Below are positions 13,055-52,938 of a stretch of 64,000 nucleotides of DNA, piece by piece; position 1 is the first letter of the stretch, and each line of letters begins with the position of its first letter. Position numbers and translations under genes: made by a program. Where the stretch lies: assembly GCA_902771735.1 (NCBI GenBank), contig CACXXO010000002.1:93929-157928 (forward strand). The letters run 5' to 3'. The stretch is from an uncultured Bacteroidota bacterium (GTDB lineage Bacteria; Bacteroidota; Bacteroidia; Bacteroidales; P3). The notes below the pieces were generated by a model. That model was not told the origin of the DNA. It did not search any database and saw only the letters and a program-made list of their open reading frames with translations.

Positions 13055-13136
13055 CTACCTATCATCACCCTACCAACGCCCTACCAACTCCTACCGTGGT
13101 AGGAGTTGGTAGGGCGTTGGTAGGTACTTGGTAGGG
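13055..13136. repeat. palindromic 11-nt-unit repeat, copy A
   Basis: Left arm units CTATCATCACC, CTACCAACGCC, CTACCAACTCC; centre TACC-GT-GGTA at 13091-13100; right arm units GGAGTTGGTAG, GGCGTTGGTAG, GTACTTGGTAG. The inner two units of each arm are perfect complements. It lies in the 336-nt gap 12924-13259, which otherwise holds the buk promoter and a terminator and no gene. Four more copies occur in the window. Confidence 0.92.
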
Positions 13137-13186
13137 GGTAGAGGCCTACTCTCCAGTTACCCGTCGCTTCCTATCCCGGACGGCAT

Positions 13187-13220
13187 AAAAAAAAGGGGGC
13201 AGCCATCACATGGCCGCCCC
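13187..13220 (-). terminator. intrinsic terminator after the 75-residue lipoprotein gene
   Basis: On the minus strand GGGGCGGCCAT pairs with ATGGCTGCCCC (one G-U pair) around a 3-nt loop, followed by eight T. It ends the small-lipoprotein transcript running leftward from 13713. Confidence 0.85.
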
Positions 13221-13259
13221 GATTCACATAAAAATGGGTTTTATGTTATAACTTTAGCC

Positions 13260-13487
13260 TTAGTTCCAGGGTGTTCTTTTCAGCTCTTCCACGAGTTCGT
13301 CGTTGTCCTCTTCGAGGCAGTCTACATAGGTTTTGAGGCTTGTCAGTTCGAACTGCAGCGAGTCGTTGAGGGCTTCGAGGTGCTGCTTCTCCGACAGCAA
13401 TGCGTTGTATTCCGTCCGCGAGACGGTGGAGTTGTCGCAAGCGAGGAAAAGTATTGCCAAGGGCAGGTATTTGATTAATCGTTTCAT
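13260..13487 (-). CDS. small lipoprotein with a coiled coil
   Basis: 75 residues: signal peptide with lipobox FLAC (cysteine 17), then an almost entirely helical, acidic segment with a heptad pattern (LLSEKQHLEALNDSLQF). It resembles Lpp-style small envelope lipoproteins only in architecture. It follows another small lipoprotein gene by 4 nt and is followed by a good terminator. Not assigned to a family. Confidence 0.65.
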   Translation of the reverse strand: MKRLIKYLPLAILFLACDNSTVSRTEYNALLSEKQHLEALNDSLQFELTSLKTYVDCLEEDNDELVEELKRTPWN

Positions 13488-13491
13488 AGTG

Positions 13492-13713
13492 TTAGTTCTT
13501 TATTTTTTTAGAGACGGGGCAGGCCCACGTCTCTACAGGGGTTTCGGCGGTGATGCAGTTACCCGGACTTTTCTCCCAGAAGTTATTCGTGCTGTCATCC
13601 GTCCACGTGGGATGTGGCTCGAACCCCTCATCCGTCCGCTCTTCTCTCTGTTTGCTGCAGGAGAGAAGGAGTGCCATCAGGGTTACGATGGGAATTGCAA
13701 TGTTTTTTTTCAT
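13492..13713 (-). CDS. small lipoprotein, unknown
   Basis: 73 residues with a signal peptide and lipobox LLLSC (cysteine 19), then a charged and proline-containing tail with two more cysteines (GNCITAE and TWACPVS). It is upstream of and probably co-transcribed with the 75-residue lipoprotein. No family recognised. The large nested inverted repeat 13741-13873 lies in its leader region. Confidence 0.6.
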   Translation of the reverse strand: MKKNIAIPIVTLMALLLSCSKQREERTDEGFEPHPTWTDDSTNNFWEKSPGNCITAETPVETWACPVSKKIKN

Positions 13714-13740
13714 ATTTGCTTTTAATAAACAGATAAAAGA

Positions 13741-13873
13741 AATCCGTGATACTTTCTGTTGTGTACGGAGGTTCTCGACTACCTACTATCACATACAAGA
13801 AAGCACACGGATTTACCGCGTGCGTTCTGCTTTCTTGAGTGATAGTAAAGAAATTGTCGAGATTTCCGTACAC
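13741..13873. repeat. long nested imperfect inverted repeat
   Basis: Outer arms GTGTACGGA (13761-13769) with TCCGTACAC (13865-13873); next TCTCGAC with GTCGAGA; next ACTATCAC (13785-13792) with GTGATAGT (13839-13846); next CAAGAAAGC (13796-13804) with GCTTTCTTG (13829-13837); loop stem CACACGG with CCGCGTG. Just outside, AATCCGTG (13741-13748) can instead pair with CACGGATT (13806-13813), giving a competing fold. It lies between the chrA pair and the small lipoprotein genes. Candidate leader RNA, attenuator or mobile-element remnant. Confidence 0.8.
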
Positions 13874-13993
13874 CTTGAAAAGCAAAAAACGCTTCTATAT
13901 TATATATTTATCTCTATTTATTTCTCTGTTTTATGATTACTGTTAAGTTGTTTTCAAATTGCAAAGATACGCATAAAATCCGGTTCCGCCAAA

Positions 13994-14581
13994 TTAATAG
14001 ATCAAGAACCCCACCAGGCCGGAGAGGAGGATGAGGAGGATGGGGGAGGCCTTCTTCCTGAGGGAGAGGAAGAAGACGGCGGCGAAGATGATCACGTTGA
14101 AAATGGACAGTTGAAGATTGAAGATGGTGACGGTGCCTGTTGGGGTGGGAGAGAACGCCGTGGGTACGAGCGACAGGGCGGCAGCGGCGATGAGGCCGAT
14201 GACGGTGAGGCGGAGGCCTTTGAAGATGGTGTCGAAGGGAGCCTGGTCTTTGTGTTTGAGGAGCCAGCGGCCGACGATGAGGATGAGCGTCAGGGGCAGG
14301 ATGAGGACGGCGAGGGAAGCCACGACGGCACCTGCGACGGCAACGACGGTGGGATAGCCCTCGGCGATGACGGCGGAGTAGCCGGCATAGGTAGCGGTGT
14401 TGATGCCCACGGGGCCGGGGGTAATCTGGCTGATGGCCAGAATGTCGGCGAATTCCTGCGTGGTGAGCCACGCGTGGTGGTCGACGACGGCGCTCTGGAT
14501 GAGGGCTATCATCGAGTAGCCTCCGCCGAAGGTGAAGAGGCCGATGATGAGGAACGTGTAGAAAAGTTCAAAAAGAATCAT
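13994..14581 (-). CDS. chromate/anion transporter half-subunit (ChrA family), second of pair
   Basis: A 195-residue membrane protein, one half of a split ChrA (CHR family) transporter. The N-terminal motif FGGGYSMIALIQSAVVDHHAWL and the QITPGPVGINTATYAGY segment are family signatures. Several hydrophobic helices follow. Residues near IFNLQLSIFN are encoded by an AT-rich repeat-like stretch (14098-14130) and look inserted before the last helix. It lies 30 nt downstream of the other half; the spacer is a TTTAAGGTTTAA direct repeat. Chromate export is the family name; the real substrate is unknown. Confidence 0.87.
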   Translation of the reverse strand: MILFELFYTFLIIGLFTFGGGYSMIALIQSAVVDHHAWLTTQEFADILAISQITPGPVGINTATYAGYSAVIAEGYPTVVAVAGAVVASLAVLILPLTLILIVGRWLLKHKDQAPFDTIFKGLRLTVIGLIAAAALSLVPTAFSPTPTGTVTIFNLQLSIFNVIIFAAVFFLSLRKKASPILLILLSGLVGFLIY

Positions 14582-14584
14582 TTA

Positions 14585-14630
14585 GGGTTTAAAGATAAAA
14601 AGGTTTAAGGTTTAAAGTTTAAGGTTTAAC
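14585..14630. repeat. TTTAAGG-type direct repeats between chrA halves
   Basis: Tandem copies of GGTTTAA/AGTTTAA fill the gap. The same short repeat appears between truA and prmA (17020-17042), in the pyrB-pyrI gap (40726-40742) and between der and the DUF5723 gene (56239-56258). Confidence 0.75.
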
Positions 14631-15190
14631 TGGTTCGGGCCGTTTTCTTTGGCGGTTTTGTCGATTAACTTGGAATAAGTCCATCCGGCGGCGAGGGCGA
14701 TGAGGATGACGAGGACGGGACTGATGCCGAGGAGCCAGATGAGGAGGGCGGCGAGAAGGGGTATCCATACGGTGCGGAGGGTGACGCCGGCTTTGCGTGC
14801 CAGGTTGAACACGGGTGCGGCGATGAGTGCCACGACGGCGGGACGGATGCCCATGAAGATGTGCTGCACGGCGGGGATGTCCTTGAAACGGCTGAAGAGG
14901 GCGGCAATGAGGATGATGAAGAGGATGGGCATCAGTATGTTGCCGAGCACGGCAACGAGTGCGCCCTTCACTCCGCGGAGGCGCTGGCCCACGATGGCGG
15001 CGATGTTTGCCGCGAGAATGCCGGGCATGGTCTGCGACAGGGCGATGGCGTCGAGCATCTCGGTGTCGGAAAGCCAGTGGCGCCGCCCCACGACCTCGCG
15101 CTGGATGAGCGGTATCATGGCATAGCCGCCACCGATGGTGAAGGTGCCGATTTTAAAAAAAGTTACAAACAGTTCGCAATATTTTGCCAT
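14612..15190 (-). CDS. chromate/anion transporter half-subunit (ChrA family), first of pair
   Basis: 192 residues from ATG 15190 (an in-frame TTG at 15214 is less likely). Motifs TIGGGYAMIPLIQREVV and ALSQTMPGILAANIAAIVG mark the CHR family, followed by hydrophobic helices. Together with the next gene it should form the two-chain version of ChrA in the inner membrane. It is transcribed divergently from terC. Confidence 0.88.
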   Translation of the reverse strand: MAKYCELFVTFFKIGTFTIGGGYAMIPLIQREVVGRRHWLSDTEMLDAIALSQTMPGILAANIAAIVGQRLRGVKGALVAVLGNILMPILFIILIAALFSRFKDIPAVQHIFMGIRPAVVALIAAPVFNLARKAGVTLRTVWIPLLAALLIWLLGISPVLVILIALAAGWTYSKLIDKTAKENGPNQLNLKL

Positions 15191-15223
15191 TGTTGTCGTT
15201 ATAGGAGAATTCAAAGGTCTGAA

Positions 15224-15292
15224 AGTCTAAAGGCTCAAAAGTCTTAATGTTTTTGATTGCCTCCGGCTTTTTGACTTTTAGGCATTTAGACT
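15224..15292. repeat. imperfect inverted repeat in the chrA/terC divergent gap
   Basis: AGTCTAAA (15224-15231) and AAAAGTC (15237-15243) pair with GACTTTT (15273-15279) and TTTAGACT (15285-15292). It lies in a 136-nt gap between divergent genes and resembles AT-rich filler repeats of Bacteroidota. Confidence 0.65.
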
Positions 15293-15326
15293 CCAAAATA
15301 ACGACAACTAAACAATATTATTGTAT

Positions 15327-16280
15327 ATGAATGGATTGTTTTTCGGAATGTTCATGGTCTTTGTGGTCGTCATGCTGATGCTCGACCTCTTTGTGTTCCA
15401 CAAGAAGGACAAGGTGGTAAAGGTGAAGGAGGCGGCTATATGGACCGGAATCTGGGTGGGGCTGGCGATGGCTTTCGCAGTATTGGTTTATTTCTTCGGC
15501 GACTGGATGATGCCCCCCGCTGAGGGTGTGACCGACCTGGCGGCCTATCGCGGCGAGATGGTCCAGGAGTTCCTCGCGGGCTATTTCCTGGAGGAGAGCC
15601 TTTCGATTGACAATATCTTCGTGATGATAATGATTTTCGTCAGTTTCGGCATCAAGAAAGAATACTACCACCGTGTACTTTTCTGGGGCATTTTCGGAGC
15701 CATCGTGCTGAGATTCATCTTCATCTTCGCCCTGGCAGGCCTGATTAGCAAGTTCGCATGGCTGCTGGCGGTGTTTGGTGGCATACTCATCTACAGCGGT
15801 GTGAAAATGTTTCTCGACAAAGGCGACGAGCAGATCGAGACTGAGAATCATCCTGTGGTGCGTTTCGCATCGAAGCATTTCCCCGTTGCTCGCGAGAACC
15901 ACGGCCACGATTTCTTCTACATGGGCAAGATGACACCGTTGTTCCTGGTCCTGTTGGTGATTGAGTTCTCGGACATCATCTTCGCCGTCGACTCCATCCC
16001 GGCCGTCTTCTCGGTGACCAAGAATCCGGTGATTGTCTATACCTCCAACATCTTTGCCATCATGGGATTGCGCTCGCTGTTCTTCCTGTTGAGCGACGTG
16101 GCCGACCGTTTCTGGCTGCTGCATTATGGCTTGGGTGTGTTGCTGGTGTTCATCGGCGTGAAGATGATTGGTGGCGAGATTTTTGGCTGGCATATCCCGA
16201 CACTGGTCTCGCTGGCCGTTATCCTGGGTATCCTGGTGGTGAGTGTTGTCTTTTCGATGTTGATTAAAAAGCGTGCCTGA
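15327..16280 (+). CDS. TerC/Alx family integral membrane protein
   Basis: 317 residues from ATG 15327 (TTG two codons earlier rejected). Multi-pass membrane protein of the TerC family, with the acidic signatures SIDNIFVMIMIFVSF and IEFSDIIFAVDSIPAVFSV that place aspartates in the membrane. Relatives (Alx, MeeF/MeeY) export manganese, and older names refer to tellurite. It ends 6 nt before truA, so the two are probably co-transcribed. Confidence 0.93.
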   Translation: MNGLFFGMFMVFVVVMLMLDLFVFHKKDKVVKVKEAAIWTGIWVGLAMAFAVLVYFFGDWMMPPAEGVTDLAAYRGEMVQEFLAGYFLEESLSIDNIFVMIMIFVSFGIKKEYYHRVLFWGIFGAIVLRFIFIFALAGLISKFAWLLAVFGGILIYSGVKMFLDKGDEQIETENHPVVRFASKHFPVARENHGHDFFYMGKMTPLFLVLLVIEFSDIIFAVDSIPAVFSVTKNPVIVYTSNIFAIMGLRSLFFLLSDVADRFWLLHYGLGVLLVFIGVKMIGGEIFGWHIPTLVSLAVILGILVVSVVFSMLIKKRA

Positions 16281-16286
16281 TCCGCC

Positions 16287-17030: not shown

Positions 17031-17043
17031 ACCTTAAACCAGA

Positions 17044-24282: not shown

Positions 24283-25647
24283 TTGAACCTCGAAGACAAA
24301 TACAACCAGATGACCACCAAGCCCGTCAAAAGCTTGGTCTGCAAAATGGCCGTGCCCACCATCATCGCCATGGTCACCACCGCCCTCTACAACATTGTCG
24401 ACGCCGCCTTCATCGGCCGCCTCAGCACCCCGGCCACCGCTGGCATCGGCATCTCCTTCGCCTACATGACCTTTATCCAAGCTCTCGGGTTCTACTTCGG
24501 ACACGGCAGCGGCAATCACATCTCCAGAGCGTTAGGCGCCAAGAATGTGTCTTCGGCGTCGGTTGTGGCCACTGTTGGTTTCATCACTCCCTTCCTTTTG
24601 GGAGCGGTGGCAGCGCTATTCTTCCTGCCCAATCTTGGATGGCTGAGCCGCATCCTCGGTGCCCCGGAAGATGTGGTACCCTATGCTAATGATTATCTGC
24701 GCTATATCGTTCTTGCTACGCCGTTCATGATGTCTGCTCTTACCCTCAACAACCAACTTCGTCTCCAAGGAAACGCTCAGTTCGGTATGGTGGGTATTGT
24801 CAGCGGTGCCATCCTCAATATTGCTCTCGATCCACTTTTTATTTTCACTTTTGACATGGGGGTGAGCGGTGCTTCTCTGGCCACAGCCATCAGTCAGATC
24901 TTTGCCTGGTGCCTACTTTTGTCTGGAACTTTCCGTCCTGAAAGTGTGCACATAAGATTGCTCGACTTCAAGCCTTCGTTGAAAGTATATTATGAGATAT
25001 TCAGAGGCGGACTTCCTTCTCTTTTTCGGCAGGTGTTCAACTGTGCTGCCGCCGTTTCGCTGAACTATTGTGCCAAACTTTATGCCGCTCCGGGACAGGA
25101 GGCGAGTGCAGTCGCAGCCTTCGCTGTCGTCACTCGCATCATGATGTTCGCCTTCAGTGTCGTGTTGGGCTTCTCTCAGGGATTCCAGCCTGTATGTGGC
25201 TACAACTATGGGGCCAAGCTCTATGGCCGTGTGCGTGAGTCGTGGCTCTTCGCCACCTGTATAGGCACGGCCTTCTTGCTCGTTATCTCTTCTGTCGGCC
25301 TATTGTTCGCACCACAGATAGTTGCACTCTTCCGCGCCGAAGACCCCGTGCTTATCGATATTGGCGCCGTCACCCTCCGCTGGCAGTGCGCAGCCTTCCC
25401 CCTGGTGGCCCTCTTCACCACCACAGGCATGCTCTTCCAGAACATCCGCTTCACCGGCCCCGCCACGCTGCTAAGTGTCTGCCGCAACGGTCTCTTCTTC
25501 CTTCCGGCATTGCTCTTACTGCCCCTCTGGCTCGGCATGACGGGGGTACAGATGGCACAGGCCGTCGCCGACCTCCTCTCCTTCCTCCTCTGCATCCCCT
25601 ACGCAATCTGGATTAACCGCAAACTAAAGAATCTTAACAATTGTTAA
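24283..25647 (+). CDS. MATE family efflux transporter
   Basis: About 454 residues and 12 hydrophobic segments, a cation-coupled drug/metabolite exporter of the inner membrane. N-terminal VKSLVCKMAVPTIIAMV and GFSQGFQPVCGYNYGAK are typical. I chose TTG 24283, because the segment before the first ATG (24310) resembles the conserved N-terminus of homologues; ATG 24310 is the alternative. Codon use changes along the gene: C-ending codons dominate near the start and end, with a more mixed middle. Confidence 0.9.
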   Translation: MNLEDKYNQMTTKPVKSLVCKMAVPTIIAMVTTALYNIVDAAFIGRLSTPATAGIGISFAYMTFIQALGFYFGHGSGNHISRALGAKNVSSASVVATVGFITPFLLGAVAALFFLPNLGWLSRILGAPEDVVPYANDYLRYIVLATPFMMSALTLNNQLRLQGNAQFGMVGIVSGAILNIALDPLFIFTFDMGVSGASLATAISQIFAWCLLLSGTFRPESVHIRLLDFKPSLKVYYEIFRGGLPSLFRQVFNCAAAVSLNYCAKLYAAPGQEASAVAAFAVVTRIMMFAFSVVLGFSQGFQPVCGYNYGAKLYGRVRESWLFATCIGTAFLLVISSVGLLFAPQIVALFRAEDPVLIDIGAVTLRWQCAAFPLVALFTTTGMLFQNIRFTGPATLLSVCRNGLFFLPALLLLPLWLGMTGVQMAQAVADLLSFLLCIPYAIWINRKLKNLNNC

Positions 25648-25707: not shown

Positions 25708-25744
25708 CTTGCCTAATCCTTTGTACCACATACGTATGAACTCC

Positions 25745-25819
25745 CTACCATCTCCTTACCAACTCCTAACCAACTCCTACCACGGTAGGTGTTGATAGGG
25801 TTGTGGTAGGTAGTTGATA
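25745..25819. repeat. palindromic 11-nt-unit repeat, copy B
   Basis: Left units CTACCATCTCC, TTACCAACTCC, TAACCAACTCC; centre TACC-AC-GGTA (25778-25787); right units GGTGTTGATAG, GGTTGTGGTAG, GTAGTTGATAT. More degenerate than copy A but with the same register. It lies between the MATE terminator and the sufB promoter. Confidence 0.88.
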
Positions 25820-25898
25820 TTTAAGAGTTGTTAACATTTTGTCTTTCGGGTAGTTTTCATTGTTGATAAAAATACCGCCGTATGTCGTTCTTTTTTCG

Positions 25899-25933: not shown

Positions 25934-27379
25934 ATGGACAACGACGAAAAAAATATAATTCAGGAAGTTACAAGTGAAGAGTATAAATGGGGATTTACTA
26001 CCGATATTGACACCGAGACGATCCGCAAAGGGTTGGACGAAGATATCGTGCGTTTGATTTCGAAGAAGAAGGGCGAGCCCGAGTGGCTGCTCGAGTTCCG
26101 CCTCGAGGCGTTCCGCCGCTGGCAGAAGATGAAGGAGCCGGACTGGGCCCACTTGGAGTATGAGTCTCCGAACTATCAGGACATCATCTACTTTGCTGCT
26201 CCCAAGCAGGAGAAAAAGAAGAGCATGGACGAGGTAGACCCCGAACTGCTGGCCACCTTCGACAAGCTCGGTATCCCGTTGCGTGAGCGCGAGGCGCTGG
26301 CCGGAGTGGCCTACGATGCCATCATGGACTCCGTGAGCGTGAAGACCACCAGCCAGAAAGCCCTCGAGGAGAAGGGCATCATCTTCATGCCCATCAGCGA
26401 GGCCGTGCAAAAACACCCCGACCTGGTTCGCAAGTATTTAGGTTCCGTGGTGCCGTCGACCGACAACTTCTTCGCCGCCTTGAACAGCGCCGTCTTCAGC
26501 GACGGCTCCTTCTGCTACATCCCCAAGGGGGTGCGCTGCCCGATGGAACTGAGCAGCTATTTCCGCATCAACGCCAAGGGCACAGGCCAGTTCGAGCGCA
26601 CGCTGATAGTGGCCGATGAGGGTGCCTACGTCTCCTACATGGAAGGCTGCACGGCTCCGCAGCGCGATGAGAACCAGCTGCATGCCGCCATCGTGGAGAT
26701 TGTGGTGATGAAGGATGCCGAGGTGAAGTACAGCACGGTGCAGAACTGGTACCCGGGCGACAAGGATGGCAAGGGCGGCATCTACAACTTCGTCACCAAG
26801 CGCGGCATCTGCAAGGGGTCGCACTCGAAGCTCAGCTGGACGCAGGTGGAGACGGGTTCTGCCGTCACGTGGAAATATCCGTCGTGCATACTGCAGGGAG
26901 ATGATTCCACGGCAGAGTTCTATTCTGTCGCTGTGACGAACAACTACCAGCAGGCCGACACCGGTACCAAGATGATACATGTGGGCAAAAACACCCATTC
27001 GACCATCATGAGCAAGGGCATCTCGGCTGGCAAGAGCCACAACTCGTACCGCGGACTGGTGCAGATAGGCAAGGGAGCTGACAATGCGAGGAACTACTCG
27101 CAGTGCGACAGTCTGTTGCTTGGCGACCAGTGCGGCGCCCACACTTGGCCCTACATCAAGGCCGACAACCACACCGCCATCCTCGAGCACGAGGCTACCA
27201 CAAGCAAAATATCTGAGGACCAGCTCTTCTACTGCCAGCAGCGCGGCATCAGTCCCGAGAGTGCCGTGGGCCTCATCGTCAACGGCTACGCCAAGGATGT
27301 GCTGAAGAAACTCCCTATGGAGTTCGCCGTCGAGGCGCAGAAACTTTTATCGATATCTCTGGAAGGAAGCGTAGGGTGA
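25934..27379 (+). CDS. sufB: Fe-S cluster assembly scaffold SufB
   Basis: A 481-residue scaffold subunit of the SUF system, which builds Fe-S clusters with SufC and SufD. Typical features: N-terminal [32 protein letters not shown], then the beta-helix core with [16 protein letters not shown] and [18 protein letters not shown]. Start ATG 25934 follows the -7 box; an upstream in-frame TTG lies in the promoter itself. SufC and SufD are not adjacent: the next genes are a TonB-C lipoprotein and an RNA methylase. Window hydrogenases would need such clusters. Confidence 0.97.
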
Positions 27380-38355: not shown

Positions 38356-39612
38356 ATGGTAGAGCTGCCCCCGACCAACACCCTTGCCCCGCACGAGCAT
38401 AGCCTTGCCAACGGCCGCAAACTTTATTATTTCCCCTCTGCCACCGAGCTGATAAAAATCGACTTGCTCTGCGAAGCCGGCTCGGCCTACCAGCAACGGC
38501 CTCTTGTTGCAGCGGCAGCCAACAAACTTTTCACCGTGGCCTCTGAAAACATGGATGCCGAGCAGCTGTCGGAATTCATGGACTTCCGTGGCATCATTGT
38601 CGAGAGCAACAACACAGCCCTTCAATCTTCTGTCACCCTTTACACCCTTAGCCGCCACATCGACAGCCTTCTGCCTGTCCTTGACGACCTGGTTCACCAG
38701 CCCCTCTTCCCTCAGCGCGAGTTTGACATCTACCGAAACGAGCGGCACCAGAAAATCTTGGCTTCGCAGCAGAAAAGCTCCGATATGGCTCGCCGCCTTT
38801 TCTACGAAAAACTATTTGGTTCCGACCACCCATTGGGACGCTACGCCGTTCCCGACGACGCCCTCCGGCTCAACCTCCTCGACGTCAAGCAACATTTTGC
38901 CGACTACCACCGTCCTGGCGATACAACCATCGTCCTCGCCGGCCATGTCGACGACCGTCTGCTTGCCGCCGTCGACGACCGTTTCGGCCACGACACTCCC
39001 TCCCAATCCCCAAAACATTTGACTCTTCAACCCACACCAATTCTCAATTCACAATTTTCAACTTTCAATTACCCCATTCCCACCGCCGTCCAGTCCACTC
39101 TTCGCGTCGGTCGAATATTGCCATTGCGTTGGGATGACATCAACTATGCCCGCCTCACTATCCTTGTCACCATTCTCGGAGGCTACTTCGGATCGCGTCT
39201 CATGAGCAACCTCCGCGAGGACAAAGGATACACCTATGGCATCTACGCCCGCACCCAAATCTACCGCGGAGTCATTCTCTTCTACATCACTGCCGACGTA
39301 GCAGGCAACGCCACCAAAGAGGCCGAGAATGAAATAATGAATGAGCTGCAACGTCTTATCGACGAGCCCGTTGCAGCCGAAGAACTCGATCTCGTGCGCA
39401 CGGTCCTTGTGGGCGACTTCCTGCGTTCGGTCGACGGCATCTTCGAACGTTCGGCCCGTTTCTGCGACATGCTGGGCTCCGATATTACCGAACTGTTCAC
39501 CGACAACCTCCGCGAGGCTATCCATACGACCACTCCCGCCGACCTCCAGCACCTCGCTTCCACCTATCTCGCTCCCGAGCAGATGACCGTCTGTCGCGCC
39601 GGTGCCCTCTAA
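38356..39612 (+). CDS. M16-family peptidase-like protein lacking the zinc-binding motif
   Basis: 418 residues with the two-domain M16 fold. The first domain has LVAAAANKLFTVASENM where active enzymes have HxxEH, so it cannot bind zinc the normal way; the second keeps the substrate-binding LREDKGYTYGIYA. It resembles non-catalytic M16 subunits, but no active partner is nearby. The interdomain linker near residue 230-240 contains PILNSQFSTFNYP, encoded by an AT-rich repeat seen elsewhere between genes. Copy C of the 11-nt-unit palindrome follows the stop. Confidence 0.85.
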   Translation: MVELPPTNTLAPHEHSLANGRKLYYFPSATELIKIDLLCEAGSAYQQRPLVAAAANKLFTVASENMDAEQLSEFMDFRGIIVESNNTALQSSVTLYTLSRHIDSLLPVLDDLVHQPLFPQREFDIYRNERHQKILASQQKSSDMARRLFYEKLFGSDHPLGRYAVPDDALRLNLLDVKQHFADYHRPGDTTIVLAGHVDDRLLAAVDDRFGHDTPSQSPKHLTLQPTPILNSQFSTFNYPIPTAVQSTLRVGRILPLRWDDINYARLTILVTILGGYFGSRLMSNLREDKGYTYGIYARTQIYRGVILFYITADVAGNATKEAENEIMNELQRLIDEPVAAEELDLVRTVLVGDFLRSVDGIFERSARFCDMLGSDITELFTDNLREAIHTTTPADLQHLASTYLAPEQMTVCRAGAL

Positions 39613-39619
39613 CCTTAGA

Positions 39620-39728
39620 CTACCTATTTTCACCCTACGAAAGCCCTACCAACACCCTACCAACTCCTACCGTGGTAGGAGTTGATAGGGTGTTGATAGG
39701 GTCTTGATAGGTGGTTCATAGGTAGTTT
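39620..39728. repeat. palindromic 11-nt-unit repeat, copy C (longest)
   Basis: Left: an irregular outer unit then CTACGAAAGCC, CTACCAACACC, CTACCAACTCC; centre TACC-GT-GGTA (39668-39677); right GGAGTTGATAG, GGTGTTGATAG, GGTCTTGATAG, GTGGTTCATAG. It begins 8 nt after the M16 stop in a convergent gap; the other content of 39613-39854 is the terminator below. Confidence 0.9.
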
Positions 39729-39795
39729 AACCTTCTCATTTACAAGATGCCCACTTGAAACGGACAGGCGAAATAATACCGTCAGCAGCTACAAT

Positions 39796-39854: not shown

Positions 39855-40241
39855 TTAATTCTCGCGGTTCTTCTTCTCATGATTGATGAGGAGGACGAGC
39901 GAGACGGTCTCGAAAACCAGCATCACGGAGAAACCGATACAGAAGGCGATGGCGAAGAGTTTGGCCTGCTGTGTATGCGTGAAGAGGTAGGCCGCGAAGA
40001 CCACCAGGTGGATGAACAGCGTGGCGACGGTGGTGGCCAGGAAGAACTGCACGAAACGCTTGGGCGATTGGTACATGCTCTTCACCACGAAATAGTGCTG
40101 CACGCCGGTGATGGCGGCGAAATAGAGCGCCAGCAGCGGCATGACCGTGAGGAACCGCTCGGGAGCCGTCCACATCACCACAAAGGAGGCCAGTGCCAGC
40201 ATCAGCGCCACGGCGATGAGCGAAATGTAATATCTCTTCAT
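39855..40241 (-). CDS. small four-helix membrane protein, unknown
   Basis: 128 residues with four predicted membrane helices (LIAVALMLALASFVVM; MPLLALYFAAITGV; FFLATTVATLFIHLVVFAAY; FCIGFSVMLVFETVSLVLL) and a charged C-terminus. No family recognised with confidence. It follows pyrI by 12 nt on the same strand, so is likely the last gene of the pyrB-pyrI transcript. Confidence 0.65.
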   Translation of the reverse strand: MKRYYISLIAVALMLALASFVVMWTAPERFLTVMPLLALYFAAITGVQHYFVVKSMYQSPKRFVQFFLATTVATLFIHLVVFAAYLFTHTQQAKLFAIAFCIGFSVMLVFETVSLVLLINHEKKNREN

Positions 40242-44230: not shown

Positions 44231-44809
44231 TCATTTTTTTGTTTCGTTTTTCTGCAATTTTTTTTCAATCCATCGTGCAACCCCGTGGACCACAAAAGCC
44301 ACCAAAACGCCAAACAAGGCACCGCAGATGAGGTCGCCGGGGTAGTGCTTGCCCAGATAAGCCCGGCTGTAACTGGTAAGGAATGCCCACGCAACCATGC
44401 AGATAGGCACAACCCTGTCTTTTTTCCAATATCTAAGACAGAAAAACACCGCAATGGCGAAGGCGTTGGCTGCGTGCGAGGAGATGAAGCCGTAGAGGCC
44501 ACCGCAACCCTCGCGGAACATGTGGACATTCTCCAGCGCATGGCACGGCCGCAGGCGGCAGACGGTGTTTTTGAACAGTTGAACGCTTCCCTGGTCGGCA
44601 AGCAGAAAACAAAGTCCGATACCTGCAAGCACTATCCACCAACGTTTCGGTTCGTGGCGCAAGGTGCTGAAACAGAATGCCGCCACGATGACAATCAGCC
44701 AACTCCACCTGGCACTGAGCACCCACATCACCCAATCCATCACCGCGCAGTGGTGGCCGTTGATGAAATAGAAGAACTGGGTATCGAGATTGTTAAGGGT
44801 TTCAATCAT
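44231..44809 (-). CDS. PAP2-family membrane phosphatase
   Basis: 192 residues, about five helices. The three phosphatase motifs are present: KNTVCRLRP, the FISSHAAN segment (SSHA for PSGH) and [13 protein letters not shown]. It likely dephosphorylates a lipid phosphate such as undecaprenyl or phosphatidylglycerol phosphate at the outer face of the inner membrane. It starts 8 nt inside the end of obgE. Confidence 0.92.
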
Positions 44810-45794
44810 TGGTCAATTTATCGTAAATCAAGTCTTTCAAAACATCGATATTCTGTCCGCTGACGGCGCTGATGAACACCGCTTCAACACCCTTGGGCAG
44901 GTGGCGTTTCAACTGTTTCTGCATCACCTCGTCCATCATGTCACATTTGGTAACAGCCAGGATTCTCTGTTTGTCAAGTAGTTCTGGATTGTATTTCTTC
45001 AGCTCCTCGAGCAAAATATGATATTCTTTGGCAATTTCCAGTTGTTCGCAACTCACCATAAAAAGGAGAATGGAATTGCGTTCAATGTGTCGCAGGAATC
45101 TCAACCCCAAACCTTTGCCCTCGGCCGCACCCTCGATGATGCCGGGGATGTCGGCAATGCAGAACGAGCGGTCATCACGGTATTTAACAATGCCGAGATT
45201 GGGAACGAGGGTAGTGAAGGGGTAGTCGGCAATCTCGGGACGGGCAGCACTCACGGCACTAAGGAATGTAGATTTTCCCGCATTGGGGAAGCCTACAAGT
45301 CCCACATCGGCAAGCACTTTCAGTTCGATGATGACCCAGCGCTCCACGGCGGGTTCGCCGGGTTGGGCGTAGCGGGGAGTCTGGTTGGTGGCGCTCTTGA
45401 AATGGTCGTTGCCCAAACCGCCGCGGCCGCCCTTGGCAATGATTAGTTCCTGACCTTCCTCGGTCACCTCGCCCAGCATCTCGCCGGTCTCGGCATCGCG
45501 GCAAACGCAGCCCAGCGGGACCTCCAGAATCTGGTCCCTGCCCGTGCGGCCGGTGCACAGGTTCTCGCCGCCATGCTCACCGTCCTCGGCGAAGACATGC
45601 TTGGTGTATTTCAGATGCAGCAGGGTCCAGCGTTGCGTGGTGCCACGCAGGATGACATGGCCGCCACGGCCGCCGTCGCCGCCGTCGGGACCAGCCTTGG
45701 CGTTGTACTTCACTCGCAGCAAATGGGCGCTGCCCGCGCCGCCCTTGCCACTCCGCACCAGTATTTTTACATAGTCTACAAAGTTCGAGGTCAT
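44802..45794 (-). CDS. obgE: Obg-family ribosome-associated GTPase
   Basis: 330 residues. The N-terminal glycine-rich Obg fold ([18 protein letters not shown]) is followed by the GTPase domain with [23 protein letters not shown] and VTKCD. Acts in 50S subunit assembly. No C-terminal OCT domain, as is usual for this lineage. PAP2 is coupled downstream. Confidence 0.96.
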
Positions 45795-45902
45795 GTATTA
45801 TATTTGTTTTATTATAATAACGACGCCGAGGATGTTTTATTGTGATTAATTTAACAAAAAAATGCCCTCGGAAACGGTTAAGTTTCGGTTAGTGCTAACC
45901 AC

Positions 45903-45980
45903 CTATCAACCAGTAACCAACTCCCTACCAACTCCTACCACGGTAGGAGTTGGTAGGGAGTTGACAGGGCGTTGGTAGGG
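45903..45980. repeat. palindromic 11-nt-unit repeat, copy D
   Basis: Left CTATCAACCAG, TAACCAACTCC, CTACCAACTCC; centre TACC-AC-GGTA (45935-45944); right GGAGTTGGTAG, GGAGTTGACAG, GGCGTTGGTAG. It lies between the adk terminator and obgE. Confidence 0.9.
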
Positions 45981-46055: not shown

Positions 46056-46613
46056 TTAACCGATGGCCTGACGGATGCGGGCGGCGATGTCCTCGATGGT
46101 GCCGAGGCCGTCGACGACCTTCTGCTTGCCTTGCTTGGCGTAGTAGTCGGCCACGGGTTTGGTCTTGTTGTTGTACTCCTGCAGGCGGTTGTTGATGGTC
46201 TGCTCGTTGTCGTCGGCGCGGCCCTGAATCTTGGCACGCTCGAGCAGACGGCGCATCAACTCGTCTTTCGGCACCTCGAGCTGCACCATGCAGGTGAGTT
46301 CGCGGCCATGCTTGGCAAGGAGTTTGTCGAGGGTTTCTGCCTGAGCCACGGTGCGGGGGAAGCCGTCGAAGAGCATGCCCTTGGTGTCGGCGGAGATGGC
46401 TTTGTCCATCATCTCGACAACGATGTCGTCGCTCACCAGTTGGCCGTTGTCCATGATGTTTTTGATGCGCTTGCCGAGTTCGGTCTGGTCGGCAATTTCC
46501 TTGCGCAGCAGGTCACCTGTGGAGACATGGGTCAAGCCGTAGGTCTCAACGATGAAGTCGCTCTGGGTGCCCTTGCCGGCGCCGGGAGCTCCGAAAATAA
46601 CTATATTCTTCAT
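46056..46613 (-). CDS. adk: adenylate kinase
   Basis: 185 residues, short-lid form. P-loop GAPGAGKGTQ at 8-17, STGDLLRKEI, FDGFPRTVAQAE. Balances ATP, ADP and AMP. Its ATG overlaps the stop of the FKBP lipoprotein gene (ATGA), an unusual coupling of nucleotide metabolism with an envelope isomerase. Confidence 0.96.
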   Translation of the reverse strand: MKNIVIFGAPGAGKGTQSDFIVETYGLTHVSTGDLLRKEIADQTELGKRIKNIMDNGQLVSDDIVVEMMDKAISADTKGMLFDGFPRTVAQAETLDKLLAKHGRELTCMVQLEVPKDELMRRLLERAKIQGRADDNEQTINNRLQEYNNKTKPVADYYAKQGKQKVVDGLGTIEDIAARIRQAIG

Positions 46614-49163: not shown

Positions 49164-49202
49164 CGATTTTTCCCGTATATTTTATGATATAAATGTAAAA
49201 AA

Positions 49203-50315
49203 TTAGTTCTCCGCTCCGAACTCCATCAAATAAGCTTTGATAAACTCGTCGATATGGCCGTCCATAACGCCGGAAACATCGGAGGTCTGATAGTTGGTGC
49301 GGTGGTCTTTCACTCGTCGGTCGTCCATGACATAGGAGCGAATCTGCGAACCCCATTCAATTTTTTTCTGATTGGCCTTGATTTTGTCTTTCTCTTCCAT
49401 GCGGTGCTTGAGCTCACGGTCGTAGAGCTGCGAGCGGAGGAGGCGCATGGCGTTCTCCTTGTTCTTGGGCTGGTCGCGGGTCTCGGTGTTCTCGATGAGG
49501 ATTTCCTCTTCCTCGCCGGTGTAGGGGTCCTTGTACTGGTAGCGCAGGCGCACGCCCGACTCGACCTTGTTGACGTTCTGTCCGCCGGCGCCGCCGCTGC
49601 GGAAAGTATCCCATGAGAGTTTCGACATATCAACCACCACTTCAATAGAGTCGTCCACAAGCGGTGTAACACTGACACTTGTAAAACTCGTCATGCGCTT
49701 ACCTTGAGCATTGAAAGGAGAGACACGCACCAGGCGATGAACACCGGTTTCGGACTTGAGGTAACCATAAGCAAACTCGCCTTCGATTTGCAACGTACAA
49801 CTCTTGATTCCCGCGCCGTCACCGTCGAGACTGTTGGAAACAACCACCTTGTAGCCGTGGGTCTCGGCATAGCGTATGTACATGCGCATAAGCATCTCGG
49901 CCCAGTCTTGGGCTTCAACGCCACCTGCACCGGCATTGATGCTGAGGACGGCATCGAGACGGTCGCTGTCATTGCGCAGCATGTTCTTGAATTCCAAGTC
50001 CTCGACTTTCTTTTGTGTAATAGCAATCTGAGCTACGAGCTCCTCCTCGGTAGCGTCGCCGGCATCGAAGAATTCACCCATCACTTCGAGGTCGCCACAA
50101 GCGTTCTCGACATCTTTATAGGCTGTCACCCAGTTCTTTTTGGCATTGATTCCTTTTACCACCTTCTGGGCTTCCTTGGGGTCGCTCCAAAAGTCGGGGG
50201 CTTCGGTCTTTTTCTCCTCTTGGGCAATCCATGCGGCGGTAGTGTCGATGTCAAGGAATTTCTTCAATGCGTCCTTGCGCGCGACGAGATCTTTTATCTG
50301 TTCCTGGTTGGTCAT
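49203..50315 (-). CDS. prfB: peptide chain release factor 2
   Basis: 370 residues; terminates at UGA and UAA. The GGQ motif is in RSGGAGGQNVNKVESG and the recognition motif is SPF in HRLVRVSPFNAQG. The N-terminal region reads KKFLDIDTTAAW in a single frame, so the CTT-TGA programmed frameshift of many prfB genes is absent (the site is CTTGAC). The start is 17 nt after the SRP RNA 3' end. Confidence 0.96.
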   Translation of the reverse strand: MTNQEQIKDLVARKDALKKFLDIDTTAAWIAQEEKKTEAPDFWSDPKEAQKVVKGINAKKNWVTAYKDVENACGDLEVMGEFFDAGDATEEELVAQIAITQKKVEDLEFKNMLRNDSDRLDAVLSINAGAGGVEAQDWAEMLMRMYIRYAETHGYKVVVSNSLDGDGAGIKSCTLQIEGEFAYGYLKSETGVHRLVRVSPFNAQGKRMTSFTSVSVTPLVDDSIEVVVDMSKLSWDTFRSGGAGGQNVNKVESGVRLRYQYKDPYTGEEEEILIENTETRDQPKNKENAMRLLRSQLYDRELKHRMEEKDKIKANQKKIEWGSQIRSYVMDDRRVKDHRTNYQTSDVSGVMDGHIDEFIKAYLMEFGAEN

Positions 50316-50329
50316 ATATGTACATTAAA

Positions 50330-50430
50330 AAAGGGCAAGCTGTTTATATCGCACCGCTACAACCAAACACCCTTGCTGTATTCCTACCCTGGGGGATTCA
50401 ATGGGAGCTGGTCGTATAAGACTTGCCCCT
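50330..50430 (-). ncRNA. ffs: signal recognition particle RNA, small bacterial (4.5S) type
   Basis: On the minus strand a GGGCAAG/CTTGCCC closing stem (50422-50428 with 50333-50339) brackets a stem ending in CCCAGGGTAGGAATACAGCA, which contains the GGAA tetraloop and the asymmetric AGCA bulge that bind Ffh. The length of about 100 nt fits. A T-run follows immediately (50327-50332). A good promoter lies upstream. It delivers nascent membrane proteins to FtsY with Ffh. Confidence 0.9.
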
Positions 50431-50477
50431 CTGAGGTTTGTGGAGTTATTCTATTACTCCATTGCCTTTACGAGTTG

Positions 50478-50508
50478 CAAAGATACGACTTTTTTTTTAT
50501 CCTGCAAA
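50478..50508 (-). promoter_or_regulatory. promoter of the SRP RNA
   Basis: Minus strand TTTG (50505-50508), 19-nt spacer, TATCTTTG (50478-50485). It is the clearest -33/-7 pair in the window. Confidence 0.75.
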
Positions 50509-50509
50509 A

Positions 50510-51862
50510 TTATTCTGCAAAATACTTGTAGAACAGTGGTATCGTCTCGATGCCCTTGAAGAACTGCTGCAGGGGGTAGTTCTCGTTGGGGGCGTGGATG
50601 TCGTCGCTGGCCAGGCCGAAGCCCATGAGGATGCTCTTGAGGCCCAGTATCTTCTCGAAGCCGGCAACGATGGGGATGCTGCCGCCGCTGCGGGTGGGGA
50701 TGGGGCGCTTGCCGAAGGTGTCGGTCATAGCCTTTTCGGCGGCCTTGTAGGCTTTGAGCTCCAAGGGACTGACGTAGGCGGCGCCGCCGTGGCAGGGCGT
50801 GACCTTCACGGTGACGTAGTCGGGAGCTACGCTCTCGAAGTAGTTCTTGAACATCTCGCTTATCTTCTCGAAGTCCTGGTTGGCCACCAGACGGGTGCTT
50901 ATCTTGGCATAAGCCTTGCTGGGGAGAACGGTCTTGGTGCCCTCGCCGGTGTGGCCGCCCCAGATGCCGCACACATCGAGGCAGGGACGGATGCCGGTGC
51001 GCTCCTTGGTGGTGTAGCCTTTTTCGCCCTTCAATGCCTTGACGCCGAGGTCCTTCTTATACTGTTCCTCGTCGAAGGGAGCCTGTGCCATGAGGGCGCG
51101 CTCCTCGTCGCTGAGCACCAGCACGTCGTCGTAGAAGCCGGGAATGGTGATGTGGCCGTTCTCGTCGTGCAGGTCGGCAATCATCTTGCAGAGCACGTTG
51201 ATGGGGTTGGCCACAGCGCCGCCGAAGATGCCGCTGTGAAGGTCATGGTTGGCGCCGGTCACCTCCACCTCCCAGTAGCAGAGGCCGCGGAGGCCGCTGG
51301 TAATCGAGGGCACGTCGGGGGCAATCATCGAGGTGTCGCTCACCAGGATGACGTCGGCTTTTAATAAATCCTTGTTCTTCTCGCAGAAGCCGTAGAGGCT
51401 GCCACTGCCAATCTCCTCCTCGCCCTCGAGCATGAACTTGACGTTGCAGGGCAGCTGGTTGGTGCGCACCATGTATTCGAAGGCTTTGGCGTGCATGAAG
51501 CTCTGACCCTTGTCGTCGTCGGCACCACGGGCCCAGATGTAGCCGTCCTTGACCACCGGCTCGAAGGGCTGCGTGCGCCACAGCTCGAGCGGCGCCACGG
51601 GCATCACGTCGTAGTGGCCGTAGACCAACACGGTGGGTTTCTTCGGGTCTATAATCTTCTCGCCATAGACCACGGGGTTACCGTCGGTGGGCATCACCTC
51701 TGCCTTGTCTGCACCTGCCGCAAGCAGCAGCTCTTTCCAGCGCTCGGCGCAGCGCACCATGTCGGGCTTGTGCTCCTGCTCAGAGCTGATGGAAGGAATA
51801 CGGATTAAAGAGAAAAGTTCTTCAAGAAAACGATCTTTGTTCTGTTCAATGTATTGTTTCAT
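50510..51862 (-). CDS. M20-family dipeptidase
   Basis: 450-residue zinc peptidase of the carnosinase/dipeptidase branch. Metal ligands are in VYGHYDVMP, GADDDKGQ, EGEEEIGSGS and SDTSM, and the lid domain starts near SGLRGLCYW. Cytosolic, degrades dipeptides. It lies 25 nt downstream of the cysteine-rich membrane protein gene and may share its transcript. Confidence 0.94.
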   Translation of the reverse strand: MKQYIEQNKDRFLEELFSLIRIPSISSEQEHKPDMVRCAERWKELLLAAGADKAEVMPTDGNPVVYGEKIIDPKKPTVLVYGHYDVMPVAPLELWRTQPFEPVVKDGYIWARGADDDKGQSFMHAKAFEYMVRTNQLPCNVKFMLEGEEEIGSGSLYGFCEKNKDLLKADVILVSDTSMIAPDVPSITSGLRGLCYWEVEVTGANHDLHSGIFGGAVANPINVLCKMIADLHDENGHITIPGFYDDVLVLSDEERALMAQAPFDEEQYKKDLGVKALKGEKGYTTKERTGIRPCLDVCGIWGGHTGEGTKTVLPSKAYAKISTRLVANQDFEKISEMFKNYFESVAPDYVTVKVTPCHGGAAYVSPLELKAYKAAEKAMTDTFGKRPIPTRSGGSIPIVAGFEKILGLKSILMGFGLASDDIHAPNENYPLQQFFKGIETIPLFYKYFAE

Positions 51863-51887
51863 GATATATTATTGTTTGATTATTTTT

Positions 51888-52760
51888 CTATCTGACAATG
51901 ACTTTCACGCCCTCGCGTTCCATCTGTTGGGAGGGACCGTTAGGATCCAGCTCTATCATAGGGATGGTGGACATTCCAATAATAATTTCCTCGGGCAGCG
52001 GTGCGTCGAGCGACATCAATTGAAGGTCTACCACAGTGAAACCCGTCTCTTTTACCTTGATTCCAACCTTCTCATAGAGAAGGTAGCCAACGGAAGACAC
52101 TTTCATGTCATAGGTTCCGGGGTCGAGGCCTTCAATAAGATAGTTGCCGGTGGAGTCAGAAATCTCTTTCGCGAAGAAATTTTCCTCGCCGTCTTTGTAA
52201 AGCAGCACATTGGCGTATGGTACAGGATTTCCAACTTGGTCTTTGATGAGGCCCTTGATTTTGCCTGTGGCGTTTAACGAAACACTTTTGTGGATGGGTA
52301 ACACCGTCGGCAGGGTGTCCACCGGGATGTATTTTATTTTTTGGGGGTCATCCGAAATATACCCCATAAAATATTCACCTGATGGAATCTCAATGATTGG
52401 AATGTTTTCTGCATTCTTCGTGCTGATGGTGTCCTGCGCCGTGGCGGCACCCGGCGCGGCCAACCCCAACGCCAACCCGGCGACGGTGGCCACCTTTCCG
52501 AGCTTTATCCTCTCGGCCAGAGTGTTTTCCAAATACCGCACCTCGGCCTCGCACCGCGGGCAGGTCCCGAGGCACTCACCCTTGTAGGTGCACTCCTTAA
52601 TCTCCAGAGGGATGTCATTTTCCTCGGCGATGCGTCGCCGCACCTCCTTTAGTGCTTCGCACAAGACCTTTCCTCGGCTCGACAAAACAAAACGTTTTTT
52701 GCTCTGCTCTCGCTCCTCTGAAAGGTTTAACTGCTTGCAGATGTTCTTCCCGTGGTTCAT
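51888..52760 (-). CDS. membrane-anchored protein: Cys-rich cytoplasmic segment plus carboxypeptidase-like domain
   Basis: 290 residues from ATG 52760. Residues 1-85 are charged and contain four cysteines (C57, C63, C67, C70; ECTYKGECLGTCPRCEAEVR) that could bind zinc. A hydrophobic helix is at 88-108, and residues about 152-240 are a CarboxypepD_reg-like fold (GKIKGLIKDQVGNPVPYANV). Between CKQL and KEVRRRIAEEN it carries about 25 residues (including SKKRFVLSSRG) that look inserted compared with relatives I recall. Confidence 0.7.
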   Translation of the reverse strand: MNHGKNICKQLNLSEEREQSKKRFVLSSRGKVLCEALKEVRRRIAEENDIPLEIKECTYKGECLGTCPRCEAEVRYLENTLAERIKLGKVATVAGLALGLAAPGAATAQDTISTKNAENIPIIEIPSGEYFMGYISDDPQKIKYIPVDTLPTVLPIHKSVSLNATGKIKGLIKDQVGNPVPYANVLLYKDGEENFFAKEISDSTGNYLIEGLDPGTYDMKVSSVGYLLYEKVGIKVKETGFTVVDLQLMSLDAPLPEEIIIGMSTIPMIELDPNGPSQQMEREGVKVIVR

Positions 52761-52850
52761 TTTTACAATAAAAACATAAATAATAACGTCGAAGGGATAA
52801 TTATATTGTGCCGGGAGGGAAATTGTTAAAATCATCTTGGGTCGAAATGC

Positions 52851-52938
52851 CTACGAAGGCCTTACCAACACCCTACCAACTCCTACCATGGTAGGAGTTG
52901 GTTAGGAGTTGGTAGGGAGATGGTAGGTGGTTTATACG
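52851..52938. repeat. palindromic 11-nt-unit repeat, copy E
   Basis: Left CTACGAAGGCC, TTACCAACACC, CTACCAACTCC; centre TACC-AT-GGTA (perfectly self-complementary, 52884-52893); right GGAGTTGGTTA, GGAGTTGGTAG, GGAGATGGTAG. It lies between the YqiA terminator and the Cys-rich protein gene in the gap 52761-53042, which holds no other feature. Confidence 0.9.

What the first reader, a model, noticed from the sequence alone, without database searches (positions are those of the whole stretch)
13055..52938. Five-copy family of intergenic palindromes built from 11-nt units
Seen directly: near 13055-13136, 25745-25819, 39620-39728, 45903-45980 and 52851-52938, arms made of repeated CTACCAACNCC units mirror arms of GGNGTTGGTAG units around a 10-nt centre TACC-NN-GGTA. 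The unit length is constant at 11 nt, close to one helical turn, so each copy presents the same face of the duplex 6-8 times. The arms vary between copies by substitutions that often remain complementary. This is not a simple REP hairpin: it looks like a helically phased array of half-sites, possibly for a DNA-binding or nucleoid protein, or a large hairpin in RNA. No transposase or RAYT gene is in the window. Five copies in 64 kb imply hundreds per genome. Centre dinucleotides are GT, AC, GT, AC and AT.
Basis: seen in the sequence. Interest (0 to 1): 0.85.

Follow-up and report, generated by a model that had tools for sequence, protein, structure and literature searches.

The report
Evenly spaced 11-letter intergenic DNA arrays
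A group of gut bacteria keeps short mirror-like DNA arrays, built from 11-letter units, between genes roughly every 12,000 letters of the chromosome; species spell the unit differently yet keep its length and the spacing, which suggests markers for chromosome organisation rather than ordinary repeats.

Summary
The five palindromes are real; about 140 lie in the 2.29-Mb draft genome. They hold an exact 11-nt register to about 60 nt per arm and lie between genes. They are not RNA hairpins kept by pairing: arms of one locus match no better than re-paired arms. They are not REP/RAYT: no Y1 transposase in this 95.9%-complete genome; Y1 genes read in relatives carry other, short REPs. Two larger features emerged. 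(1) Other species of the genus carry intergenic arrays of other sequence but mostly the same 11-nt unit (30 of 39 arrays, 19 species sampled); the five families searched for are each concentrated in one or a few genomes. (2) Arrays are evenly spaced. In 850 kb, 59 elements have mean spacing 13.4 kb, CV 0.56, none closer than 3.2 kb; lag-11 arrays of other sequence fall into the intervals. Later data agree: G022 stretches (CV 0.51, P=0.0005), listed sites of G048 and G028 (0 of 75 spacings under 4 kb). Best reading, unproven: chromosome-organising sites recognised by 11-bp phase. Chief rival: a mobile element with target immunity.

The parts
13049..13136 (.). copy 1: inverted array of 11-nt units, centre GT at 13096-13097; between the start of an acetate-kinase-like gene (11832-12923, -) and a short predicted gene (13260-13487, -)
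25740..25822 (.). copy 2: centre AC at 25782-25783; between a MatE gene (24283-25647, +) and a SufB/D gene (25934-27379, +); weakest fold of the five
39615..39730 (.). copy 3: centre GT at 39672-39673; between convergent genes (38356-39612 +, peptidase M16-like; 39855-40241 -). Orthologous site filled in G021 and G045; short gap (about 5 to 97 nt) without an array in G002, G014, G035, G022, G048
45897..45980 (.). copy 4: centre AC at 45940-45941; between obg (44802-45794, -) and adk (46056-46613, -). Same gap or gene end in relatives: same family in G021 and G045; a different short palindrome in G002; a 9-nt array in G051; a related direct 11-nt array in G028
52850..52938 (.). copy 5: centre AT at 52888-52889; between a CarboxypepD_reg gene (51888-52835, -) and 53043-53660 (-). 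A copy lies beside an orthologous flanking gene in G021, G045 and G002; none in the 19-nt gap of G014

Best explanation
These are chromosome-organising sites. Each is an intergenic array of 11-bp units, usually two arrays facing each other around a short centre (about 90-130 bp). 11 bp is close to one turn of negatively supercoiled DNA, so every unit presents the same face. I infer that a nucleoid protein, or DNA gyrase or another topology-sensing machine, reads the phased array (or the cruciform it can extrude) and makes each site a barrier or anchor for a supercoiled loop of about 12 kb. Because phase and spacing matter more than letters, the unit sequence can drift and be homogenised across the sites of a genome while the sites stay at intervals. 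Shown here: 11-nt register, intergenic place, even spacing, avoidance between arrays of different sequence in G000, species-specific sequences, retention of sites among relatives of the same family.
For: Even spacing in G000: 59 elements, mean 13.4 kb, CV 0.56, minimum 3231 bp, 2 adjacent pairs under 5 kb; 5000 placements on gaps matched for type and length give CV 0.85 (P=0.0006), 12.9 pairs under 5 kb and median minimum 698 bp, none as extreme for the last two. Two further nulls agree. Occupied gaps of 200 bp or more, counted as gap-element pairs by distance: 0 of 21 within 3 kb, 4 of 27 at 3-5 kb, 19 of 59 at 5-8, 29 of 70 at 8-12, 63 of 139 at 12-20. Arrays of other sequence keep away: 0 of 11 within 5 kb of an element against 5.2 expected, P=0.0006; stricter threshold 0 of 8 against 3.9, P=0.003; pooled CV 0.45 against 0.89. 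Data obtained after that result: G022, 31 arrays in 422 kb, mean 13.6 kb, CV 0.51 against 0.88, P=0.0005; 1 pair under 5 kb against 6.5, P=0.0015; listed sites of G048 and G028, 0 of 46 and 0 of 29 spacings under 4 kb, P=0.0001 and 0.002. 11 is the best lag in 30 of 39 arrays of 19 species. Sites persist: 16 of 17 syntenic element gaps of same-family relatives (12 of 13 distinct G000 gaps) also hold an element in G000, where 59 of 203 gaps of 120 bp or more do.
Against: No binding protein, topology or expression datum. Near-identical copies in G011 show recent dispersal, which a fixed structural site does not need. Reuse of the same gaps by other families is only suggestive: 13 of 17 against 10 of 23 gene ends (P=0.038), 13 of 16 against 10 of 17 (P=0.15) when the G000 gap is 200-1500 bp, and two of the 13 come from a G028 array whose sequence resembles the G000 family; an earlier table showed no clear excess. 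In G022 avoidance between families is 0 of 11 against 2.1 (P=0.07), its two main families alone show fewer close pairs only weakly (1 against 2.6, P=0.21), and its listed sites give P=0.14. G021 and G045 (0 of 38 and 0 of 27 spacings under 4 kb, P=0.001 and 0.03) share the family and many sites of G000, so they are not independent. With other-sequence arrays added, one pair in G000 is 1202 bp apart. Some species use 9-nt units (G030, G042, G051), which a helical-turn argument does not predict. Plain autocorrelation of gaps has lag 11 on top in only 7 of 20 genomes. No array was called in 40-kb samples of G039 and G015. Many other-sequence arrays look direct, not inverted. One review reports 10-400 kb domains with apparently random barriers in E. 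coli (section read).
Confidence: 0.42

Rival explanations
1. A non-autonomous mobile element (MITE-like). Its transposase binds the repeated 11-nt units, copies spread between genes, and target immunity keeps new copies some kilobases from old ones, as known for Mu- and Tn7-like transposons (recalled). Species-specific sequences reflect waves of different elements.
For: Near-identical copies at different loci in G011; families concentrated in one or a few genomes; a smooth distance-dependent exclusion curve; gaps without the element in relatives.
Against: In G000 arrays of different sequence also keep their distance, which sequence-specific immunity would not give. No target-site duplication or terminal motif was established. 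No Y1 transposase in G000 or in G028, G008, G015, G037, G040, all of which carry arrays. In same-family relatives nearly all tested sites are shared (16 of 17), so there is little sign of movement in that clade. No exact match to the 20-base family core in the viral contig collection. Other transposase families were not searched for.
Confidence: 0.33
2. The spacing arises by purging: close copies recombine and delete genes between them, so only distant copies survive; the arrays are neutral repeats.
For: Exclusion is strongest under 3 kb; repeats within a family are similar.
Against: Avoidance extends to arrays of different sequence in G000 and to several kilobases; arms of 40-60 bp with scattered differences are weak substrates (general knowledge, not tested).
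Confidence: 0.1
3. RNA elements: bidirectional terminators, or large hairpins that protect mRNA ends.
For: Very stable predicted folds on both strands; several window copies lie next to ordinary terminator-like hairpins (read by eye).
Against: No arm covariation across loci; 20 of 59 between divergent genes; terminator-like hairpins with A/T runs exist separately beside copies; arrays with dyad scores no better than control gaps exist.
Confidence: 0.07
4. Operators for a regulator with many targets.
For: Inverted repeated half-sites upstream of genes.
Against: Convergent gaps also carry them (10 of 59); of ten flanking genes in the window, seven had Pfam matches and these are unrelated in function; the sequence differs between species while the spacing is similar.
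Confidence: 0.05

Closest known systems
BIMEs / REP elements of enterobacteria
   Same: Intergenic palindromic repeats in high copy; [quoted passage not shown]
   Different: REPs are mostly 20-50 nt hairpins (PMC12306157, passages); here 90-130 bp arrays of 11-nt units, evenly spaced, with unit sequence differing between species but the length mostly kept, and no RAYT association found.
REP/RAYT systems (Y1 transposase)
   Same: High-copy intergenic palindromes differing between species; this genus also has Y1 loci with REP-like flanks.
   Different: The Y1 loci read here are flanked by their own short palindromes; the array-bearing own genome shows no Y1 gene.
BrickBuilt MITE of Porphyromonas gingivalis
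   Same: Intergenic element of a Bacteroidales species built from tandem units (PMC4596501, abstract and outline).
   Different: 23-nt tandem repeats with leader and tail, 19 copies in one strain; here 11-nt units, mostly inverted in the main families, genus-wide, evenly spaced.
Genome-wide 11-bp sequence periodicity of bacteria
   Same: About 11 bp, commonly interpreted as the pitch of negatively supercoiled DNA (PMC4132750, start of abstract in listing); in E. coli concentrated in intergenic regions (PMC516772, title and start of abstract in listing).
   Different: That is a periodic nucleotide or dinucleotide bias; here whole 11-mers repeat in discrete arrays. PMC7537859 (start of abstract in the same listing) disputes part of the supercoiling reading.

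Membership tests
REP/RAYT | Y1 (RAYT) transposase in the genome | tested here: not met
   PF01797: 0 matches in G000, 95.9% complete; also none in G028, G008, G015, G037, G040, which carry arrays
REP/RAYT | RAYT gene flanked by copies of the repeat | tested here: not met
   14 Y1 places fetched; 9 had a predicted gene over the hit; up to 420 nt of each flanking gap of these 9 was read by eye: short REP-like palindromes, no inverted 11-nt array; one (L375) has a short direct 11-nt array further out in the gap; the other 5 places were not read
REP/RAYT | single short hairpin of about 20-50 nt | tested here: not met
   11-nt register to about 60 nt on each side
BIME | composite of alternating REP units | tested here: not met
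   anatomy: facing arrays of one 11-nt unit, no REP subunits seen
BIME | impedes supercoil diffusion / binds gyrase | not testable with these tools
   needs an experiment
MITE | terminal inverted repeats with target-site duplication | tested here: inconclusive
   near-identical copies in G011 but no duplication established; gaps without the element in relatives too diverged
MITE | related transposase ends in the genome | not tested
   no candidate transposase other than Y1 was searched for
RNA hairpin or terminator family | compensatory pairing | tested here: not met
   observed 26.16 against 26.87, sd 0.29
RNA hairpin or terminator family | match to an Rfam family | tested here: not met
   at gathering thresholds only a Bacteroidales small SRP elsewhere in the window
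BrickBuilt MITE | 23-nt tandem unit | tested here: not met
   unit is 11 nt and arms are inverted

The most novel reading that the evidence does not exclude
A sequence-independent system of chromosome landmarks: genomes of this genus lay 11-bp-phased arrays about every 12 kb as topological boundaries, and the whole set is re-spelled during speciation while unit length, spacing and many positions are kept, much as centromere satellites turn over under a conserved function.
Probability: 0.35. Interest if true: 0.96.

Novelty: categorically new. Interest (0 to 1): 0.86.

Why it matters
What sets supercoil-domain boundaries in bacteria is open; [quoted passage not shown] A DNA element defined by unit length and spacing rather than by letters, evenly placed along chromosomes of several species, would make that question directly testable, and would be a bacterial case of fast sequence turnover under conserved architecture. 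If it proves to be mobile, it is a repeat class whose spacing rule extends to arrays of different sequence, which needs its own explanation. My paper searches found no description of it; the library holds only open-licence papers and the searches match words, so this is weak evidence of novelty.

Tried and rejected
RAYT/Y1 mobiliser: rejected. RNA hairpin by covariation: rejected. Rfam: nothing at the copies. First strict pattern GTTGGTAGGNNNTGGTAG: 0 matches, too strict. Viral contigs: 0. Literature by motif letters and by description: nothing on point in the listings. Orthologous-gap tests: (threshold 30: 5 array gaps, 2 with a G000 element; 29 non-array, 4) shows no clear excess, and at threshold 32 none of 3; (5 of 7 against 4 of 24, P=0.012) is not matched for gap size; one search is the fairest and only suggestive. 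The coincidences read come from element-centred loci and are biased; they are not used as proof. Outside the genus: 30 kb from two other genera plus two short loci of the same two genera gave no array, but my gene caller, trained on this genus, called hardly any gene there and the sample is far too small. Integron attC sites, CRISPR and uptake sequences were considered and set aside on anatomy, without a search.

Limits: draft metagenome assemblies; home-made gene caller; array thresholds chosen by eye and not the same everywhere (28 to 31 of 44), though shuffled gaps gave 0 at threshold 31. Many of the 109 copies used for anatomy come from 72 loci found by a 26-nt pattern that fixes one arm to position 18 and the other to position 8. 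The spacing effect was found and first tested on the same G000 data; most of the G022 stretches and the G048 and G028 lists were obtained afterwards, the G021, G045 and G022 lists before. In some searches I used only the places printed in the listings (truncated, mostly zero-mismatch) and collapsed neighbouring matches by hand. One search dropped contigs with one listed site and left out G011 (11 spacings, smallest 12145); its null is uniform placement between the outermost sites of contigs with three or more, not limited to gaps. Rows include the same G000 gap seen from two relatives and allow one gene in between.
Full report
What is there. The window belongs to a draft genome, called G000 here (2.29 Mb, 37 contigs, 95.9% complete). 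Each is a dyad around a two-base centre (GT, AC, GT, AC, AT); both arms, read outward, follow GGTAGGAGTTGGTAGGGnGTTGGTAGGGnG. In 109 distinct copies from G000 and relatives, information content is fixed in register with an 11-nt period and fades by about 60 nt from the centre. The G at 5, 16, 27, 38 and the freely varying base at 18, 29, 40 show the unit length.

Copy number and place. Up to two mismatches to an 18-nt core give 141 forward and 140 reverse matches in G000 against 6 and 13 for the reversed pattern. A position-weight dyad scan of 850 kb (37% of the genome) gives 59 elements, none inside a predicted gene and none in one base-shuffled version; 29 are between tandem genes, 20 between divergent and 10 between convergent genes; 59 of 203 gaps of 120 bp or more are occupied. 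In the fetched loci, 103 of 109 elements had a predicted gene on both sides: 45 tandem, 42 divergent, 16 convergent, none inside a gene.

Not a hairpin kept by pairing. Folds are very stable, but arms of one locus are no more complementary than arms re-paired between loci: 26.16 against 26.87, sd 0.29; unit 2 is slightly above expectation (z 1.6), units 3 and 4 below (z about -4). Elements have two different arms: an asymmetric two-arm model scores -10218 against a mean of -10368, sd 22, best -10335, for 15 re-paired controls (the controls had fewer random starts). At the copy 3 site, G021 and G045 share flanks but differ in both arms in a matched way, which looks like template switching within the palindrome (inference). 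The palindrome thus seems a by-product of two facing arrays.

Not REP/RAYT. G000 shows no Y1 transposase. In the family, 62 of 149 genomes have one, but G028, G008, G015, G037 and G040, which carry arrays, do not. Of 14 Y1 places fetched, 9 had a predicted gene over the hit; up to 420 nt of each flanking gap of these 9 was read by eye and shows short REP-like palindromes, no inverted 11-nt array. One (L375) has a short direct 11-nt array further out. The other 5 places were not read.

A genus-wide class. Among 59 genomes of the genus, own included, the CTACCAAC family is abundant in G000, G021 (151 forward), G045 (112), G007 (33), G035 (32) and G002 (21); all others have at most 5 forward matches. 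Other species have their own palindromes of 11-nt units: G028 (TTGTTCTTCGA), G022 (TTCTTCAGTAG, CAACGATACTT), G053 (TATGTACGGTA), G011 (TAGTATTACGG), G025 (TATATGTGCTA). In 40-60 kb stretches of each of 19 species, 39 arrays passed a fixed threshold; 11 nt was the best of periods 8-20 for 30, 9 nt for 4; shuffled gaps gave none. 14 of the 19 species had at least one 11-nt array; G030 and G042 had 9-nt arrays (one called as 18), G005 an 8-nt one, G015 and G039 none in the sample. G015 does have some by pattern search. Plain autocorrelation of all gaps is weaker evidence: lag 11 is on top in 7 of 20 genomes. Families are narrow: the G022 unit is found 121/121 times in G022, 29/32 in G008, 3/6 in G015 and at most once elsewhere; the G011 unit 94/92 in G011 and nowhere else; the G028 unit 326/358 in G028 with scattered variants in 7 other genomes, at most 7/12 in one of them; the G048 unit 140/154 in G048 and once in G006. 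Matches are counted per unit pair, so they exceed the number of arrays. Copies in G011 can be identical over more than 100 bp at different loci, so spread can be recent.

Even spacing. In the 850-kb sample the 59 elements have mean spacing 13.4 kb, CV 0.56, minimum 3231 bp. Placing 59 elements at random on gaps matched for orientation and length gives CV 0.85 (P=0.0006), a median minimum of 698 bp and 12.9 adjacent pairs under 5 kb against 2 observed (5000 runs, none as extreme for the last two). Keeping numbers per contig and weighting by gap length gives the same. The chance that a gap of 200 bp or more is occupied rises with distance from another element, counted as gap-element pairs: 0 of 21 within 3 kb, 4 of 27, 19 of 59, 29 of 70, then 63 of 139 at 12-20 kb. 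Eleven other lag-11 arrays exist in the sample at a lax threshold, eight at a stricter one; some may be relatives of the main family (TCGGAGTTG types), others are not (CCTTCGACGAT, CTCTTACTCCT). None lies within 5 kb of an element, 5.2 expected (P=0.0006; stricter set 0 of 8, 3.9 expected, P=0.003). Adding the eleven makes the series more even: 70 arrays, mean 11.3 kb, CV 0.45, 3 pairs under 5 kb against 20.4 expected, though one pair is then 1202 bp apart.

Other genomes. After that result I fetched more of G022, 422 kb in all with two stretches held before. Its 31 lag-11 arrays, of several unit sequences (some sharing outer units with the main family), have mean 13.6 kb, CV 0.51 against 0.88 (P=0.0005), one pair under 5 kb against 6.5 (P=0.0015); the two main families alone give CV 0.51 (P=0.0055) but 1 close pair against 2.6 (P=0.21). 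Its 11 other arrays give 0 within 5 kb of the main families against 2.1 (P=0.07). Sites listed for G048 and G028, also obtained later, give 0 of 46 and 0 of 29 adjacent spacings under 4 kb (simulated means 7.7 and 5.0; P=0.0001 and 0.002). Earlier lists give 0 of 38 for G021 (5.1; P=0.001), 0 of 27 for G045 (2.9; P=0.03) and 0 of 19 for G022 (1.7; P=0.14); G021 and G045 share the family and many sites with G000 and are not independent. Median distance is about 12 kb in G000 and G022, although the sequences are unrelated.

Positions through time. Of 19 element gaps in other species whose flanking genes are neighbours (at most one gene between) in the G000 sample, 18 hold an element in G000: 16 of 17 from species of the same family type (12 of 13 distinct G000 gaps), and 1 of 1 each for G011 and G051. 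For other families, 13 of 17 gene ends that face an array, and whose G000 ortholog faces a gap of 120 bp or more, have a G000 element; for ends facing non-array gaps it is 10 of 23 (P=0.038); with G000 gaps of 200-1500 bp it is 13 of 16 against 10 of 17 (P=0.15); per gap 10 of 13 against 8 of 19. Two of the 13 come from a G028 array resembling the G000 family. Reuse of the same gaps by different arrays is suggestive only. Sites can also be without an array: at copy 3, five relatives have gaps of about 5 to 97 nt.

Reading. Two facts need a common cause: unit length is mostly kept while letters change, and arrays keep their distance even when their sequence differs. A sequence-specific transposase explains neither fully. 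A machine that senses 11-bp phase, or the structures such arrays form under negative supercoiling, explains both and fits the intergenic place. That bacterial genomes carry an 11-bp periodicity linked to the pitch of supercoiled DNA is in the literature (PMC4132750, start of abstract in listing; disputed in PMC7537859, same listing). The review section read for domains says barriers are not yet identified, names BIMEs as candidates and gives domain sizes of 10-400 kb with apparently random placement in E. coli (PMC6907758 section 17). Here barriers, if such they are, would be evenly set. The mobile-element rival remains strong because copies do spread. No experiment or expression data bear on either.

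Verdict. Observation confirmed; interpretation partly supported and much enlarged. As a class defined by unit length and spacing it failed at least one defining test for REP/RAYT, BIME, RNA hairpin families and BrickBuilt; MITE membership is open. I therefore mark it categorically new, with the mechanism at 0.42.

Noticed in passing
L369, L370, L371, L375, L378 (Y1 loci of G021, G045, G048, G002, G023): RAYT-like loci in relatives, surrounded by short REP-like palindromes such as GACCCCGTAGGGGTC or CCCCAGACTGCCGTCTGGGG; separate from the 11-nt arrays.
   Followed up: partly
G022 contigs C13 and C6 (L344-L363): Some gaps hold arrays called with 8- or 14-nt periods (for example AAGTGAG, CTTAACTA) instead of 11-nt ones; a different class, not studied.
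   Followed up: no
L219:11297-12300 (G030), L232:10437 (G042), L203:1662 and L163:2869 (G051): These species use 9-nt units (GACCCATTA, CCTATTAGC, TCTAGACAA) in similar intergenic arrays, one of them at the obg-adk gap that holds copy 4 in the window.
   Followed up: partly
window 52440-52680: Part of the CarboxypepD_reg gene matches many places in relatives' genomes at about 71-83% identity, probably a multi-copy domain.
   Followed up: no
L184 and L186, gap beside the copy 3 ortholog: G021 and G045 carry about 1.2 kb of extra, probably coding, sequence beside the copy 3 site that G000 lacks; the array sits at its edge.
   Followed up: no
window 50329-50435 (-): Bacteroidales small SRP RNA (RF04183), 111.6 bits.
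   Followed up: no
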